Below are positions 19,259 through 51,387 of a stretch of 64,000 bases of DNA, piece by piece (within the stretch, counting starts at the first letter, position 1; the number at the start of each line of letters is the position of its first letter). A program made the translations under genes and the position numbers. The DNA comes from a virus. The stretch spans positions 1-64,000 of IMG/VR virus record IMGVR_UViG_3300044678_002325; one strand, written 5' to 3'. The notes under the pieces were generated by a model. The model ran no database searches and was not told the origin of the DNA. It was given only the letters and a program-made list of their open reading frames with translations.

Positions 19259-19717
19259 CTATAACTCAATAAAGATATCATAAGTTCCATTTTCATAGTA
19301 ATTTGTTGAACAATTTCTTAATATGATACCATCATAATTTTTTTCAATTAACATTTCTTTATATTTGTCAACCCCACCGAATTTGTATATTTCATCCATA
19401 TAAACTTGAAATGAGTCATAATCTTCATCATCTGAATTAACAACATATGGATTTTCAAATTTTATTTCTTTAGTTAAAATCTTACCCTTAGAACCTTTTA
19501 TATTTTCATATCTATCAGTATCAACAGAATAATCAATAAGTCCAGCAAACCATTTGGCCATAGTTAAATTATCTGTCCAAAATACACCCATTCCATCATC
19601 AGATACTTTACCATAGGTAGCGTTAATTCTATCTCCAATACCACGATATACTATAGTATAATTTTCAAATTCTTCTTTTAAAATTGTTTTAATACGTATT
19701 CTTAAATCTTTCATCAT
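19259..19717 (-). CDS. putative ADP-ribosyltransferase-like protein, late gene
   Basis: 152 residues. The order YRGIG (about 24-28), GVFWTDNLTMAKWFAG (about 44-59), a GKIL/NPYVV strand pair, YDGIIL and a final YDIFIEL matches the ART fold in phage and toxin proteins (Arg, STS-like and acidic regions). The acidic catalytic pair is not clear. The N terminus IRIKTILKE ends in LKE, a weak version of the leader peptide, and TATTTATA lies 9 nt upstream, so it may be packaged in the head. Confidence 0.5.
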   Translation of the reverse strand: MMKDLRIRIKTILKEEFENYTIVYRGIGDRINATYGKVSDDGMGVFWTDNLTMAKWFAGLIDYSVDTDRYENIKGSKGKILTKEIKFENPYVVNSDDEDYDSFQVYMDEIYKFGGVDKYKEMLIEKNYDGIILRNCSTNYYENGTYDIFIEL

Positions 19718-22742: not shown

Positions 22743-23006
22743 ATGAAAAAGATAGTAAGATTAACAGAATCAGATTTAATTAGACTGGTTAAAAGAGTAA
22801 TTAATGAAGACAACTTGAAAGAGTTTGGTTCACGTAAAGATTATGAACATGAAAAAAGCTGGAATACCAAATCTCCAAAAGTATACGATACTCAAAACCC
22901 AGAACAAGATGATGACACTAAAACAATTATGGATTACATTAAAAAATTATTCGGATTAGGTTTAAAACCTAAAGAAATTAGAAAAAAATTAAAAGAATTG
23001 GAATAA
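22743..23006 (+). CDS. leader-peptide (family A) virion-cargo candidate, short
   Basis: 87 residues. Leader MKKIVRLTESDLIRLVKRVI then N-E (I20-N-E22), the predicted prohead-protease site. The remainder is charged and helical with no known domain, ending KPKEIRKKLKEL. A plus-strand gene inserted in the minus-strand tRNA array with its own TATTTATA element, so it behaves as an independent late cassette. Confidence 0.7.
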   Translation: MKKIVRLTESDLIRLVKRVINEDNLKEFGSRKDYEHEKSWNTKSPKVYDTQNPEQDDDTKTIMDYIKKLFGLGLKPKEIRKKLKELE

Positions 23007-23559: not shown

Positions 23560-23767
23560 AAAATAAATATTTTAAGTATGAAAAAATTTAGAGTAAGTAT
23601 CCACCACGTTTAAGGCTGGTTGTGGACAGTGCTACCTACGACCTTTCCTTACTCTCCCACAAAATTACAACCCTTTATTTTTATTTCCAAATGTTTTATC
23701 AAGTTTTTTTTAAAGTGGTCAAATTTAACCATTTTAAACTACACCATATTTATGATAAAATAGAATT

Positions 23768-24517
23768 ATGAAAATTATAATTAATGAATCCCAATATAAA
23801 ACAATCCTTAAAGAATTTATGGGTTCAATTGAATCAAGTAAGTTTATGAAAATTTTTAAAAAATTTTTGGAGGATAAAAATATTGTTATACTTTATGATG
23901 ATTTTAGAGAATTTACAATGCACACAAGTATAAAAATACCTAAAACAAACTTTGATGATTATCTAACCATATTTTCAGAGATTGAAAAATTTATTGAAAT
24001 TTATGGGTGGTTTATTTCAAGTTATTTAGTGATTTATAATCACCCTAATACATCAATTTATGATGAAAAGGACATTAAATTCTTAGATTATAGAAAATTA
24101 GTTGATTGGCTAAAAACGAATGAGTCAAATATCCAACTAAAACATATAATGTTAAATTTAGAAAAAAAATACACAGAACAAAATAAAGGCCATAATGTTT
24201 TTTACCACGTAACAGATAAGAAAAACACTGAAAAAATAATGACTTATGGATTAAGACCTAGAAAATCACAAAATAAATATTTCAATTATTCTGATAGAAT
24301 TTACCTAGCTGATTATGTCAAAGTAGCTTATTATATAAACGACCTTTTTAAAGATCCTAACGCCAAAACTGATTATGGTAAAGAAGGTGTTGTCGTATTT
24401 GAAATTACCTTACCTGATTCATTTAAAACTTATTTTGACCCAAAAGCACCATTGTCATCCTATACCTTAGAACCAATACCACCTAAATATATAGAAATTT
24501 ACGATTATCTAGATTAG
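23768..24517 (+). CDS. leader-peptide (family B) ADP-ribosyltransferase
   Basis: 249 residues. Leader MKIIINESQYKTILKE with predicted cut after L14-K-E16. A helical linker follows, then an ART domain (about 141-249): FYHVTDKKNTEKIMTYGLRP (His-Thr or YH motif of the PARP/DarT/KptA branch), RIYLADYVKVAYYI, VVVFEITLP and YTLEPIPPKYIEI. This is the layout expected for a head-packaged, injected ART analogous to T4 Alt. A TATTTATG element lies 14 nt upstream. The acidic catalytic residue is not certain by eye, and the modified target is unknown. Confidence 0.7.
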   Translation: MKIIINESQYKTILKEFMGSIESSKFMKIFKKFLEDKNIVILYDDFREFTMHTSIKIPKTNFDDYLTIFSEIEKFIEIYGWFISSYLVIYNHPNTSIYDEKDIKFLDYRKLVDWLKTNESNIQLKHIMLNLEKKYTEQNKGHNVFYHVTDKKNTEKIMTYGLRPRKSQNKYFNYSDRIYLADYVKVAYYINDLFKDPNAKTDYGKEGVVVFEITLPDSFKTYFDPKAPLSSYTLEPIPPKYIEIYDYLD

Positions 24518-24520
24518 ATG

Positions 24521-24593
24521 TTCCCCCTGATGGAATTGAACCACCATCCTCAGAACCAAAATCTGATGTAATAAGCCTTTATACCAAGGAGGA
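24521..24593 (-). tRNA. tRNA-Gln(UUG)
   Basis: Stem TCAGA/TCTGA with loop TTTTGGT, acceptor TCCTCCT/AGGGGGA, T loop TTCAATT. Confidence 0.9.
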
Positions 24594-31618: not shown

Positions 31619-32386
31619 TCAAATTTTAAATGGAAAATTTGATTCTGGTTTATTAATTTCAGGACTACTAATTTTTGGTAATTCTAGTGTCATATCATCA
31701 GTTTTTGATATAATGTCACTAGTCTTTGTAATTAAATCACTTGCCGTTGATTTTAATCCATTTGGTTTACTTTGTTGTATTAATTTCTCACCAACTTTAT
31801 CCATTTTATTTGTTAATCCACCCCATTTCGGACAAATTACACCTGATAATTTTTTCTGTAAATTTTGAACAAAGTCAGTATCTGCCATAACATCAGTTAA
31901 CGCATTTCTAATTGTTGCAGTTATTGGGTTTTCATATCCTTTTGACGCTAAAAACTTTCTAATCAAACCTTCAACCAAAGATTTTGTAAAAAATGGAACT
32001 GCATAATTACAATCAGTCAATTTAAACATATCACCTATTGGTAGATTACCTATTGAAGTTATAAATATTGAACCTAACAAACTATCTGGTTTTAATTTAA
32101 ATGACTGAAGTAACCATTTTGCTGCGTATTCTTTAAAATATCCAAATAACGCATTTACACCAGTTCCACTTAAAAATTTTTGTGCCATTTCTAATGTTTG
32201 TTCCGAAATAATATCAGAGTTAAATCCTTGATAATTTAGATACACATTTTCCAATAAAATATCATTAAAAAATGAATCTAAATCTTCTCTATTTCTGATT
32301 CGTCTATTCTCAACTAATATCTGTAAGTGTTTTTTGATGACAATGTCCTCTCTAATAATTGTTTTTTTTTTAATTTCATCAAATTC
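31619..32386 (-). CDS. downstream frame of a probable -1 frameshift fusion (virion protein)
   Basis: The frame is open from 32386 to the stop at 31619. The only start-like codon near a sensible place is a TTG at 32254, yet codons upstream of it read like real protein (TIIREDIVIKKHLQILVEN). There is no ATG. The frame overlaps the end of the 489-residue gene at a run of ten A (TTA AAA AAA AAA C), a -1 slippery site, so the natural product is probably a fusion of about 720 residues. The protein itself has helical and hydrophobic segments, no known domain. Confidence 0.55.
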   Translation of the reverse strand, partial: EFDEIKKKTIIREDIVIKKHLQILVENRRIRNREDLDSFFNDILLENVYLNYQGFNSDIISEQTLEMAQKFLSGTGVNALFGYFKEYAAKWLLQSFKLKPDSLLGSIFITSIGNLPIGDMFKLTDCNYAVPFFTKSLVEGLIRKFLASKGYENPITATIRNALTDVMADTDFVQNLQKKLSGVICPKWGGLTNKMDKVGEKLIQQSKPNGLKSTASDLITKTSDIISKTDDMTLELPKISSPEINKPESNFPFKI

Positions 32387-33783
32387 TCACTAATAATATT
32401 TTTTAGTAATCTATCTCTTGATTCTTGTTGTACTCTTCCAGCATCAGCGTCACTTTTTTTACGTAATCCATATTGAGTTAAGGCAGCTCCCTTCATATAT
32501 TCATCAGAATATTTAATCTTATATGCGGCTCTTGTTGATGTTGGTGCCATCATCTGATTAATCTTATCTTTTAATTTAGGATATCTTCCCTTGAATGTAG
32601 TTAAACAAGCTTCAACTCTTCTTTTTTCCTCAAGACTTGGGGCTGTTTTTTGTTCATTACTAACCATATCCGTATAATAATCTTCAATGTATTTACGACA
32701 ATTATCTTGAGTCAATGTACCTGCCCTATCACCTGCTCTGCTTATATTTACTTTTCTTGCAATTATATAACCTTTTGGAAATAATTGAGGATATTGGTCT
32801 TTATAGGTAATAAGGTCACCACTATAATATCTAGCATCACTTAAATCAACTTTTTCTAATTCACCACCTCTTTGTTCAGCGGGTGAAAAATCATCAAGTG
32901 GTTTCCATCCACCCCCATCTGGGGTAATTAAATAATCAACAAGTTTTTTTGCGTTTGTACTAAGATTTTTTGTACCTTTAGGTCGATATATTAAAAATGG
33001 AGATGTAAAATTTGTTGCGTAACCTTCATAACCTGCCAATACACCAGTATATGATTCGGGTTTTTGTAAATCAACTCGTTCATATTGACTTAAATCTACA
33101 CCTTCTATTTCACTTGGTTCTAAATACGCATTATCTTTTGCTCTTTTTAAGACGATTTGAGCTTCCTGACCCAAATCTCTTCTACCTTGTTCCATTCCAC
33201 TTGCAGTCCCTCTAGGTTTATAAAGCCAAAAAGTTTTTAATTGAGGCTTGTTTATAATGTCAAGTAATAATTGATTATTACCAATTAATCCTAGTACATC
33301 TTTATCAGTTGCAGGATTTACTAATTGGTAGTTAAACATCTCTTTTGCTGAAACTTCACTCCACTCCTTATAACGCCTATCTTTTAGATAATCAATGATT
33401 TTTTGTTCATCAGGACTTTTTACTGTGTCTGTTGTTGATTTAATTTCATTACATAATGTTGCTTCAACAAATTCTTTTTCAACACCATTACCATCACGAT
33501 AACTTACCCTAAATGAGTTTCCATCTTGGTTAGGGACAATATACATATGTGGGTACTGACTTAAATTAGGATTAGCCGATTGTTTATAAAATGCCTCACC
33601 AAATGAATGTGGATATTCTTTTCTAATTTGTGGAATTTGGTCTTTAGTTGGAGTAAATCCCTTATAGCATCCATTATTGAGTGCTAACTGAAAAAGTTTA
33701 TTTTCATAATTACCAATACCTACAACATTAGTACCTGTTAGCGGATCTTCATATAATAGTCTCCTTAATCTTGTATTTTTCAT
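32314..33783 (-). CDS. large virion-associated protein, upstream frame
   Basis: 489 residues. N terminus MKNTRLRRLLYEDPLTGTNV resembles a shortened leader, with L-Y-E12. A TATTTATA element lies 18 nt upstream. The body has two repeated GYxGYAT / YRPKGT-like blocks (LYKPRGTASG, IYRPKGTKNL), Tyr-rich, with no recognised enzyme motif. The C terminus ENLMKLKKK meets the poly-A slippery site. Probably structural. Confidence 0.6.
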   Translation of the reverse strand: MKNTRLRRLLYEDPLTGTNVVGIGNYENKLFQLALNNGCYKGFTPTKDQIPQIRKEYPHSFGEAFYKQSANPNLSQYPHMYIVPNQDGNSFRVSYRDGNGVEKEFVEATLCNEIKSTTDTVKSPDEQKIIDYLKDRRYKEWSEVSAKEMFNYQLVNPATDKDVLGLIGNNQLLLDIINKPQLKTFWLYKPRGTASGMEQGRRDLGQEAQIVLKRAKDNAYLEPSEIEGVDLSQYERVDLQKPESYTGVLAGYEGYATNFTSPFLIYRPKGTKNLSTNAKKLVDYLITPDGGGWKPLDDFSPAEQRGGELEKVDLSDARYYSGDLITYKDQYPQLFPKGYIIARKVNISRAGDRAGTLTQDNCRKYIEDYYTDMVSNEQKTAPSLEEKRRVEACLTTFKGRYPKLKDKINQMMAPTSTRAAYKIKYSDEYMKGAALTQYGLRKKSDADAGRVQQESRDRLLKNIISENLMKLKKKQLLERTLSSKNTYRY

Positions 33784-49111: not shown

Positions 49112-49759
49112 ATGAAAATAATAATAACTGAAAATCAATATAAGTTTTTGGAAAAAAATCACACAATATTGGAACAACTTGAAAGTGAAAAAATATTTCA
49201 AAAATTTATAGATATGATGATGAAAGAATTACCTAAAACTGAAACTAAACCAAAAAGTTCAGATGATTCTAAAAATTTAGATAATTTAGATAAACCAACA
49301 AAAAAAACATCAGACAAATTATTTTCTCCACTAAAAAATGTTAAATTTCCTAAAAATAATTTTGGTGCAAATAGACCAGGATTAGATAAACCAGGAAAAA
49401 GTCATCCAGGTATTGATTTGACTGCGGCATCAGGTACTGAAGTATATTCACCACAAAATGGTGTAGTAATAGATTCCGCAATTAGAAATGATGCTTGTGG
49501 TGGAACTTTATTTATTGACCATCAAAATGGTTTTAAAAGTAGATATTGCCATTTAAAACAAATTTTTGTTCAAAAAGGGGATAAAGTTGAACTTGGAGAA
49601 AAGGTAGCATTAAGTGGGGGTGGTAAGGATGACAATGGACACGGATTTTCAACTGGACCGCATCTACATTTTGAGTTATATCGCGATGGTAAATTAGTTG
49701 ATCCCATTCAGCATGTCAAAGAAAAAACATATGATGAAGATTCTGATAGTTTAGTTTAA
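49112..49759 (+). CDS. leader-peptide (family B) M23 endopeptidase
   Basis: 215 residues from ATG 49112 (the longer frame runs through the terminator and promoter). Leader MKIIITENQY then I-L-E21; residues 1-45 also match the 50190 product. Linker to about 95, then a full lysostaphin-type M23 domain: HPGIDL (about 98-103), CHL (about 146-148) and GPHLHFEL (about 182-189), so zinc-active. It cleaves peptide crosslinks in peptidoglycan. The leader predicts packaging or virion location rather than lysis. Confidence 0.8.
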   Translation: MKIIITENQYKFLEKNHTILEQLESEKIFQKFIDMMMKELPKTETKPKSSDDSKNLDNLDKPTKKTSDKLFSPLKNVKFPKNNFGANRPGLDKPGKSHPGIDLTAASGTEVYSPQNGVVIDSAIRNDACGGTLFIDHQNGFKSRYCHLKQIFVQKGDKVELGEKVALSGGGKDDNGHGFSTGPHLHFELYRDGKLVDPIQHVKEKTYDEDSDSLV

Positions 49760-50189: not shown

Positions 50190-51005
50190 ATGAAAAAATT
50201 GATAATTTCTGAAAACGAAAAGATTAGAATTAAATCTTTGTACAATATTATTGAACAAACTGAAAATGAAAAGACATTTGGTAAATTTATAAATTTAATG
50301 ATGAAAGATTTACCTAAAGATAAAACAAATTCAGATACTGGAAATGATGTTGCGGATTCAAATAATACTGAAGATACATCAACAATAGAAAGTATTAAAG
50401 ATTTGAATGATAATGAAAATATTGTACTCAAAACGTTAAAAGAAGATGGGTTTACTGACGAGGCTGCTGCGGCCGTTATGGGTGTTGTTGGTGGTGAAAG
50501 TGCATTCAAAACATTCAAAGAAGTTGGTTATGGTACAACATCAAATGATAGGATTAGAGCTATTTTTGGTGCAAGAGTGAGTAGTTATACTGACGCTCAA
50601 TTAGATGCTTTAAAAAAATCAGATGAGAATTTTTTCAATGTAGTTTATGGAGGACAACACGGAAATGCTCCAAATGAAGGGTATAAATACGTGGGTAGGG
50701 GATTCAATGGTATAACATTCAAAGGAAATTACGTAGCCGCAAAAAATTGTACAGGGATTGATTTTGTTAGTAAACCTGAATTATTGGAAGACCCAAAATA
50801 TGCGGCAAAAGCTTTGTCTTGTTATTTTAAACCAATTAAAAGTATTTCAGAGTTTGAAAAAGCGTTTCAAGAAGCTTTTCGTTATAATGCAGGTCCAGGT
50901 AATAGTTTTGCGTATTATGCTAGTAGTAATAACCCTGTTGCAGTACAAGGGATTCCACTTAAACGAGGCAAAGCTCAACAATACTACAAGAAAATAAAAG
51001 AGTAG
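50190..51005 (+). CDS. leader-peptide (family B) lysozyme-like muralytic enzyme
   Basis: 271 residues. Leader MKKLIISENEKIRIKSLYNI then I-E (I-I-E22); the following EQTENEKTFGKFINLMMKDL parallels the M23 protein. After an acidic linker, a lysozyme/GH19-like fold (about 85-271): AAAVMGVVGGESAFKT (candidate catalytic Glu about 104), YKYVGRGFNGITFKGNY and AFRYNAGPGN. Probably a virion muralytic enzyme used at infection. Confidence 0.75.
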   Translation: MKKLIISENEKIRIKSLYNIIEQTENEKTFGKFINLMMKDLPKDKTNSDTGNDVADSNNTEDTSTIESIKDLNDNENIVLKTLKEDGFTDEAAAAVMGVVGGESAFKTFKEVGYGTTSNDRIRAIFGARVSSYTDAQLDALKKSDENFFNVVYGGQHGNAPNEGYKYVGRGFNGITFKGNYVAAKNCTGIDFVSKPELLEDPKYAAKALSCYFKPIKSISEFEKAFQEAFRYNAGPGNSFAYYASSNNPVAVQGIPLKRGKAQQYYKKIKE

Positions 51006-51006
51006 A

Positions 51007-51387
51007 TTATTTTGGTTTATCCCTACATAATATCATATCTTTCTTTTCATTAAGATAATAAACATAGTCTACCCCATTTATTTTTTCTTCTTTCTTTTCA
51101 TATTTAGCCGAGTCAATTTTAAATGGTTTTTTAGAACAATGAATTGCATTTTCTATGTCTTTCTCAGTAATTTTTTTTGTTTGGTCTGATGTCGCTCCTG
51201 TTGAAGGTGGTACTCCCCCTACTGGAGGTGGTGGCGTAGTTCCACTCATAGGTGCTGGGGGTGGAGGAGGTGTTCCTCCCATAGGTGCTGGAGGTGGAGG
51301 AGGTGGCGGTGGAGCTTGTTCCAAAATATATTTACGTTCCAATAAAAGATTTCTTTCTTGAATTAGTTTTGTTTTTCTATAAGACAT
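51007..51387 (-). CDS. proline-rich protein
   Basis: 126 residues. Basic, Glu-containing N terminus (SYRKTKLIQERNLLLERKYI) with an L-I-Q-E leader-like element, then PPPPPPPP and repeated APMxGTPPPPP blocks (about 25-60), then a small soluble domain with two Cys. Poly-Pro linkers occur in phage tail and head proteins. TATTTATT lies upstream. Confidence 0.55.
   Translation of the reverse strand: MSYRKTKLIQERNLLLERKYILEQAPPPPPPPPAPMGGTPPPPPAPMSGTTPPPPVGGVPPSTGATSDQTKKITEKDIENAIHCSKKPFKIDSAKYEKKEEKINGVDYVYYLNEKKDMILCRDKPK

What the first reader, a model, noticed from the sequence alone, without database searches (positions are those of the whole stretch)
23768..24517. Leader-tagged ADP-ribosyltransferase, a probable functional counterpart of T4 Alt
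Seen: family B leader with L-K-E16, then an ART-like domain with FYHVTDKKNTEKIMTYGLRP and IPPKYIEI. Known: T4 Alt is packaged in the head, processed by gp21 and injected to ADP-ribosylate host targets. Inference: convergent or homologous strategy in a Bacteroidota phage with an unrelated ART branch.
Basis: partly seen in the sequence, partly recalled or inferred. Interest (0 to 1): 0.8.

Follow-up and report, generated by a model that had tools for sequence, protein, structure and literature searches.

The report
Capsid-tagged ADP-ribosyltransferase of a huge phage
A giant bacteria-infecting virus carries an enzyme of the ADP-ribosyltransferase kind, related to the RNA-repair enzyme Tpt1/KptA, behind the same short N-terminal tag it puts on some 30 other proteins; the tag looks like a ticket into the virus head, so the enzyme is probably carried in the particle and released into the host when infection begins.

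Summary
ORF 23768-24517 (+, 249 aa) begins with the phage's own leader MKIIINESQYKTILKE and ends in an ADP-ribosyltransferase (ART) fold. Some 50 relatives, all in large or huge phages, show that the ART domain is a divergent branch of the Tpt1/KptA NAD+ lobe (hhalign 97%, Foldseek top 18 all Tpt1, NAD-site spacing H-x-T-x7-I kept). It is not the Alt (R-S-E), PARP or DarT kind: no conserved catalytic Glu, and Tpt1's RNA-binding Arg-His-Arg-Arg tetrad was not found. The leader resembles unrelated tagged proteins of the same genome, not the ART's homologues. It ends at (L/I)-x-E, the T4 gp21 cleavage rule, kept across the family (P1 Glu 37/39, P3 Leu/Ile 34/37). A ~96%-identical sister genome encodes gp21-type protease (S77), gp20, gp23 and T4-type terminase; the same promoter-like motif precedes tagged genes and several head genes. 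The ART gene is an accessory insertion in the tRNA island, absent from the sister, which keeps a second leader-tagged ART (ART-PolyVal). Best reading: head-packaged, protease-matured, ejected effector working like T4 Alt in delivery, with different chemistry. Packaging and activity are inferred; virion proteomics and an NAD+ assay would decide.

The parts
23768..24517 (+). Leader-tagged KptA/Tpt1-like ART protein, 249 aa (stop included)
23768..23815 (+). N-terminal leader MKIIINESQYKTILKE (proposed capsid-targeting propeptide)
   Evidence: BLOSUM score median 43 against tagged, unrelated proteins of the same genome, against 23 or less for its own ART homologues; leader statistics
23807..23815 (+). 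L-K-E, proposed prohead-protease site (P3-P1), cleavage after Glu16
   Evidence: family-wide P1 Glu 37/39, P3 Leu/Ile 34/37, P2 free; gp21 rule L/I-X-E (PMC9026906)
23825..24166 (+). N-terminal alpha/beta domain (about residues 20-133), ferredoxin-like by fold comparison
   Evidence: AF2 secondary structure; Foldseek PulM/EpsM/S6 hits, individually weak
24185..24514 (+). ART (NAD+ lobe) domain, residues 140-249; H147, T149, I157, G161, R177, Y179, D224
   Evidence: conservation; hhalign 97.1% to Tpt1; Foldseek
23746..23760 (+). ATATTTATGATAAAA, promoter-like motif shared with other tagged genes and several head genes
23715..23731 (.). GTGGTCAAATTTAACCA inverted repeat (terminator-like) at the left edge of the insertion, also present in the sister genome
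   Evidence: read directly
23741..24518 (+). Accessory insertion holding only this gene and its promoter-like motif; absent at the same place of the sister genome
   Evidence: sister alignment breaks at window 21992 and resumes at 24519; sister sequence
22743..23006 (+). Second leader-tagged accessory ORF (type A leader, 87 aa) in the same stretch missing from the sister
19259..19717 (-). Second leader-tagged ART, ART-PolyVal family (leader MMKDLRIRIKTILKE)
   Evidence: PF18760 best E 1.2e-12 among aligned relatives, not for the window protein itself; present in the sister genome
49112..49759 (+). Leader-tagged M23 metallopeptidase (other cargo of the same tag)
   Evidence: PF01551 E 8.8e-26
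50190..51005 (+). Leader-tagged lysozyme/endolysin-like protein (other cargo of the same tag)
   Evidence: phrog_181 E 4.9e-22

Best explanation
The protein is an accessory effector of a large Bacteroidota-type phage. It is made late, with the head proteins. Its 16-residue leader targets it into the prohead core, the phage's gp21-type (S77) prohead protease cuts after Glu16 (ILKE|F), and the mature two-domain protein stays in the head and is released into the host with the DNA. There its C-terminal NAD+-binding lobe, a divergent Tpt1/KptA-type ART, uses NAD+ at the start of infection. Because, like Tpt1, it lacks a catalytic Glu, the likeliest acceptor is a phosphate group (nucleic-acid end or 2'-phosphate, or a nucleotide) or another reactive group presented by the N-terminal domain, rather than an Arg or Glu side chain as for Alt or PARP. 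Shown by sequence and structure comparison: leader identity, family-wide (L/I)xE site, ART fold with Tpt1 NAD-site residues, gp21/gp20/gp23 in the sister genome, shared promoter-like motif, accessory status. Inferred: late expression, targeting, cleavage, packaging, ejection, enzymatic activity, acceptor.
For: Fold: AF2 mean pLDDT 82, mostly 93-96 over the core strands of the ART domain; Foldseek against PDB, ranks 1-18 all Tpt1/KptA, E 8e-5 to 0.016, then CtxA and DarT1, with PARP10 lower. Sequence: 41-member profile against all PDB chains, best hits Tpt1 (E 3.5e-4, 7e-4), then DarT1 0.015; hhalign to nine KptA proteins 97.1%, E 4.8e-11 over 93 columns, controls 0.2% (S77) and 0.07% (reversed). 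NAD site: CthTpt1 His101/Thr103/Ile111 (PMC6333775) = H147/T149/I157, same spacing; I157 40/40, H147 39/40. Leader: genome-specific module; (L/I)xE conserved family-wide with P2 free, entropy 1.45/3.46/0.34 bits at P3/P2/P1, matching gp21's L/I-X-E and T4's capsid targeting sequences (PMC9026906). Machinery: S77, gp20-type portal, gp23-type MCP and T4-type terminase in the sister; S77 in 6 of 20 records of the ART family, 6 of the 9 that are over 150 kb, and in 5 of 5 megaphage records (3 above the curated cut-off). Promoter-like motif ATATTTAT within 50 nt upstream of 17/32 tagged against 12/79 untagged ORFs, Fisher p 9e-5; in the sister it also precedes terminase, portal, protease and scaffold-position genes. 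Cargo company: M23 peptidase, lysozyme-like protein, ART-PolyVal. Relatives include multi-ART polyvalent proteins (L065).
Against: No virion proteomics and no cultured relative found. The 78.75 kb window record itself has no S77 hit; the head genes come from the sister, which lacks this ART. On the prime side of the site G-L-x-T is also conserved, so LxEGL could be a structural start of the domain as well as a cleavage site. Several tagged genes have no motif of their own, and the motif is AT-rich in an AT-rich genome. Without Glu and without Tpt1's tetrad, activity cannot be assumed. Pfam PTS_2-RNA hits are weak (6 of 41 members, best E 0.011). Full-length Foldseek TM-scores are low (about 0.3 on the query) because only the NAD+ lobe matches.
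Confidence: 0.68

Rival explanations
1. It is a phage RNA-repair enzyme: a Tpt1/KptA that removes 2'-phosphates from tRNAs healed after host anticodon-nuclease attack, made during infection and sitting in the tRNA island for that reason.
For: NAD+ lobe is Tpt1-like; the gene lies among 26 tRNA genes; jumbo phages do carry KptA (PMC9503650; Erwinia and Klebsiella phages and phage G).
Against: The alignment to Tpt1 covers only the NAD+ lobe; the RNA lobe with Arg18/His19/Arg68 is replaced by a ferredoxin-like domain, and the NAD-contacting basic pair of Tpt1 (RHG region) is missing. Genuine phage KptA proteins fetched here start without such a leader. The leader and the promoter-like motif shared with head genes point to the virion.
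Confidence: 0.12
2. A catalytically dead ART fold used as an NAD+ or ADP-ribose binding or sponge protein, packaged or not, for example blocking NAD+-derived defence signals.
For: No conserved Glu; Tpt1 tetrad not found.
Against: Near-invariant H147, I157, G161, R177, Y179, D224 over very divergent members are typical of kept chemistry; Tpt1 itself works without a Glu.
Confidence: 0.12
3. The leader is not a capsid-targeting sequence but another tag, for example for a phage-built compartment or a shared regulatory peptide, and the ART acts from inside the cell late in infection.
For: No direct packaging evidence; leader helices resemble general amphipathic targeting helices.
Against: (L/I)xE at the leader end, gp21-type protease and T4-type head genes in the sister, tagged lytic enzymes that make sense in virions.
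Confidence: 0.18

Closest known systems
T4 Alt (head-packaged, injected ART)
   Same: ART fold; short N-terminal propeptide ending at a gp21-type L/I-X-E site (7 residues in Alt; PMC9026906); T4-type head with S77 protease in the sister genome
   Different: Alt is a much larger R-S-E type protein-modifying ART; here His in the first motif, no conserved Glu, Tpt1-like lobe, ferredoxin-like N-domain; packaging and target not shown
Tpt1/KptA RNA 2'-phosphotransferase (PF01885)
   Same: NAD+ lobe fold, H-x-T-x7-I NAD site, no catalytic Glu, C-terminal (N)G-V-[YW] ... V/I-P-P strand
   Different: RNA lobe and Arg-His-Arg-Arg tetrad absent; leader and late-type promoter-like motif; phage-only distribution in what was searched
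DarT (ssDNA thymidine ART)
   Same: Same superfamily; weak profile hit to DarT1 (E 0.015)
   Different: DarT's Glu aligns with a Gly or other residue here (my reading of the motifs); a DarG-type partner was not looked for
ART-PolyVal and other phage polyvalent-protein ARTs (PMC5512222, PMC9503650)
   Same: Predicted virion-packaged, injected ARTs; the present domain is fused to PARP-like and ART-PolyVal domains in L065
   Different: A different ART family; here a single ART domain carrying a removable-looking tag
T4 internal proteins with capsid targeting sequence (IPI-IPIII)
   Same: Short N-terminal propeptide shared by unrelated cargo and ending at (L/I)xE
   Different: Leader sequence was not aligned to the T4 CTS and no obvious similarity is claimed; targeting not tested

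Membership tests
ADP-ribosyltransferase superfamily (fold) | Split beta-sheet NAD+-binding ART fold | tested here: met
   AF2, Foldseek, profile searches
ADP-ribosyltransferase superfamily (fold) | Transfers ADP-ribose from NAD+ | not testable with these tools
   needs enzyme assay
Tpt1/KptA | NAD-site His-x-Thr-x7-Ile | tested here: met
   H147/T149/I157: 39/40 His, 29/40 Thr (8 Ser, 3 Cys), 40/40 Ile
Tpt1/KptA | Arg-His-Arg-Arg tetrad for the RNA 2'-phosphate | tested here: not met
   three tetrad residues lie in the RNA lobe, which does not align; the fourth falls in a gap (R177 lies nearby)
Tpt1/KptA | Winged-helix RNA lobe | tested here: not met
   N-domain is alpha/beta, ferredoxin-like by Foldseek, hits weak
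Alt/VIP2 (R-S-E) ARTs | Arg in first motif and E-x-E in the third | tested here: not met
   His 39/40 in the first motif; no conserved Glu in the last strand
PARP / diphtheria (H-Y-E) ARTs | His-Tyr-Glu triad | tested here: not met
   His and Tyr present; Glu position E13/D12/N6/Q5 and others
T4 Alt-like packaged effector (works like) | N-terminal propeptide with L/I-X-E cleavage site | tested here: met
   sequence and family conservation only; cleavage itself not tested
T4 Alt-like packaged effector (works like) | gp21-type prohead protease in the same phage | tested here: met
   absent from the 79 kb fragment, present in the about 96%-identical sister G020 and in G021
T4 Alt-like packaged effector (works like) | Present in virions and injected | not testable with these tools
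   no virion proteomics for any relative found
ART-PolyVal (window 19259-19717) | Match to PF18760 | tested here: inconclusive
   4 of 5 aligned members match, best E 1.2e-12; the window protein itself did not ring at E 0.5

The most novel reading that the evidence does not exclude
A phage-specific, Glu-less Tpt1-type ART family delivered from the capsid, whose acceptor is a phosphate on nucleic acid or on a nucleotide signal, so that huge phages chemically cap or neutralise RNA ends or defence nucleotides in the first moments of infection; with it, a general 'leader tag' by which Bacteroidota huge phages load dozens of swappable effectors into the head.
Probability: 0.25. Interest if true: 0.82.

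Novelty: new variant of a known kind. Interest (0 to 1): 0.62.

Why it matters
That phages package ARTs is known (T4 Alt; systematic survey PMC9503650). New here are (1) an ART family of large and huge phages, including the 540-735 kb ones, that no Pfam, PHROG or PDB entry named at significance from the single sequence, tied to Tpt1 with its RNA-recognition half replaced; (2) sequence evidence that a short, genome-specific leader ending in a gp21-type site is a detachable head-loading tag on some 30 proteins of one phage, which gives a readable list of its candidate injected effectors; (3) a natural presence/absence pair of sister genomes. If confirmed, the tag predicts the effector cargo of uncultured phages from sequence alone.

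Tried and rejected
Single-sequence Pfam, PHROGs and PDB searches gave nothing significant; the family only became visible through a Lak-phage hit at E 7e-3 and profile building. Scans of bacterial genomes found no relative, but these are pattern-limited and do not prove absence. Short leader queries against the phage collection gave no match (queries this short are hard for tblastn). Search for cultured relatives with virion proteomics: none; only Lak and the 642/735 kb uncultured phages. I first took the Glu in TLEPIPP as the ART Glu; the family alignment rejects that. A note of mine that all records of at least 155 kb carry S77 is wrong: 6 of 9 records over 150 kb do; the other three may be fragments. 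Structure of the second ART gave only weak ART hits (E 0.6 and above), so that claim rests on PF18760 in its relatives.

Full report
WHAT IS THERE. The window lies in a 78,750-base IMG/VR virus record, G000. The ORF at 23768-24517 (+) encodes 249 residues. It starts MKIIINESQYKTILKE|FMGS..., and its C-terminal part holds FYHVTDKKNTEKIMTYGLRP, YSDRIYL and SSYTLEPIPPKYIEI. The gene sits inside an island of 26 tRNA genes, on the strand opposite to them, and its stop codon lies 2 bases before the tRNA-Gln gene (24520-24593).

THE LEADER. Eighteen of 98 ORFs of at least 80 aa in the window match a leader pattern, against 0.22 expected and at most 2 seen in 200 shuffles (the pattern was formed on this window, so the number describes rather than tests). 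Two leader kinds are seen: A (MKKIVRLTESDLIRLVKRVIKE) and B (MKIIITESQ...LIxE). The rest of G000 adds more, eight of them in a row (66430-71383). The leader of this protein scores a median of 43 (self 77) against tagged proteins of the same genome that are otherwise unrelated, but at most 23, median 3, against the matching stretch of its own ART homologues in other phages. So the leader is a module of this genome and did not come with the ART domain.

THE FAMILY. No Pfam or PHROG family and no PDB chain was significant for the single sequence. A weak tblastn hit in Lak megaphages (E 7e-3) led, via small alignments, to about 50 viral loci. They lie in phage records of up to hundreds of kilobases, among them the 540-550 kb Lak phages and the 642 and 735 kb huge phages, in some in two or three copies per genome, and once inside an 884-residue protein (L065) together with PARP-like and ART-PolyVal domains. 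No relative was found in bacterial genomes (pattern-limited).

FOLD AND KIND OF ART. AlphaFold2 with 41 sequences gave mean pLDDT 82. Foldseek ranks 1-18 in the PDB are all Tpt1/KptA; cholera toxin A and DarT1 follow, PARP10 lower. A profile of the family finds Tpt1 chains first (E 3.5e-4) and then DarT1 (0.015) among all PDB sequences. hhalign against nine KptA proteins fetched from plasmids and phages gives 97.1% over the whole NAD+ lobe; S77 and reversed-sequence controls give 0.2% and 0.07%. The NAD contacts of CthTpt1, His101, Thr103 and Ile111 (PMC6333775), fall on H147, T149 and I157 with the same spacing; near-invariant G161, R177, Y179 and D224 add to them. But Tpt1's RNA lobe and its Arg-His-Arg-Arg tetrad are not found: the alignment stops at the NAD+ lobe, and the N-terminal domain looks ferredoxin-like. 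The Glu of PARP, DarT and Alt is not conserved either; Tpt1 also lacks it. Hence: an ART by fold and descent, close to Tpt1, but neither a canonical Tpt1 nor an Alt.

THE (L/I)xE SITE. T4 gp21 cuts after Glu in L/I-X-E, and the N-terminal propeptides of T4 internal proteins are capsid targeting sequences (PMC9026906). In 40 family members the residue aligned with E16 is Glu in 37 of 39, the residue two before it is Leu or Ile in 34 of 37, and the one between is free (entropies 0.34, 1.45 and 3.46 bits). The leader in front varies in length and sequence. This is the pattern a gp21-type site would leave. Caveat: G-L-x-T after the site is conserved too, so a structural role at the domain start cannot be excluded.

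THE MACHINERY. A sister genome, G020 (141 kb), is collinear with G000 at mostly 95-99% identity. It carries T4-type terminase, gp20-type portal, S77 prohead protease and gp23-type capsid protein, with ribosomal protein S21 on the opposite strand between portal and protease, the arrangement described for bS21 phages of freshwater Bacteroidetes (PMC9723584). The host assignment is inferred from that. S77 is also found in 6 of 20 records of the ART family (6 of the 9 over 150 kb), in relatives of the second ART, and in all five megaphage records tested, three above the curated cut-off.

REGULATION. ATATTTAT, often followed by TAAAA, lies within 50 bases upstream of 17 of 32 tagged and 12 of 79 untagged ORFs in G000 (Fisher p 9e-5; reverse-strand motif 2 of 32), and several of the 'untagged' ones look tagged by eye. 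In the sister it, or its longer form, precedes terminase, portal, protease and scaffold-position genes. I infer a late promoter shared by head genes and tagged cargo.

ACCESSORY STATUS. The sister aligns up to window 21992 and again from 24519. Its tRNA-Ser, -Arg, -His and -Phe genes are there, but the ART and the tagged ORF at 22743 are not; the ART insertion lies between a terminator-like inverted repeat and tRNA-Gln. The second leader-tagged ART (19259-19717, -), of the ART-PolyVal family by its relatives (PF18760 best E 1.2e-12), is present in both.

HOW IT MOST LIKELY WORKS. Made late, carried into the prohead core by the leader, cut after Glu16 by S77, kept in the head, released with the DNA, active on NAD+ at the start of infection. 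Acceptor unknown; lack of Glu and kinship with Tpt1 point to a phosphate-type acceptor (inference). Other tagged cargo (an M23 peptidase, a lysozyme-like protein) fits virion proteins that act at entry. The idea that phage ARTs ride in virions is published (PMC9503650; PMC5512222); the present family, its Tpt1 kinship and the leader tag are what I did not find described in the papers searched.

CONFIDENCE. ART fold 0.95; Tpt1-type branch 0.9; leader is a head-loading propeptide 0.75; catalytically active 0.75; the explanation as a whole 0.68, with the acceptor left open. Virion proteomics decides.

Noticed in passing
window 19259-19717 (-): A second leader-tagged ART (MMKDLRIRIKTILKE|E...), ART-PolyVal family by relatives; shared with sister genomes G020 and G021.
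   Followed up: partly
G000 66430-71383 (L109, just outside the window): Eight consecutive leader-B ORFs on one strand with divergent bodies, some near-duplicates: a cassette array of tagged cargo.
   Followed up: no
upstream of tagged genes in the window; G020 head genes (L125, L126): Promoter-like motif ATATTTATnnTAAAA shared by tagged genes and several head genes; candidate late promoter of this phage group.
   Followed up: partly
window 49112-49759 and 50190-51005 (+): Leader-tagged M23 peptidase and lysozyme-like protein next to each other, sharing a similar stretch just after the leader (ESEKIFQKFIDMMMKELPK / ENEKTFGKFINLMMKDLPK).
   Followed up: partly
G020 82716-82901 (-), L126: Ribosomal protein S21 gene on the reverse strand between portal and prohead protease, as in published Bacteroidetes bS21 phages.
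   Followed up: partly
L065:1894-4545: 884-residue polyvalent protein with several ART-like domains, including PARP-like, the present family and ART-PolyVal.
   Followed up: partly
G006 82011-82607 (L097): Another possible leader-tagged ART-like protein: MIKLIDLLNE|GKQVGTLYHFTSLSGGENII.
   Followed up: no
window 32314-33783 (-), 51007-51387 (-): ORFs with leader-like N-termini outside the two patterns (MKNTRLRRLLYE|D; ...RKYILE|QAPPPPP) that also have the promoter-like motif; the tag set is probably larger than counted.
   Followed up: no
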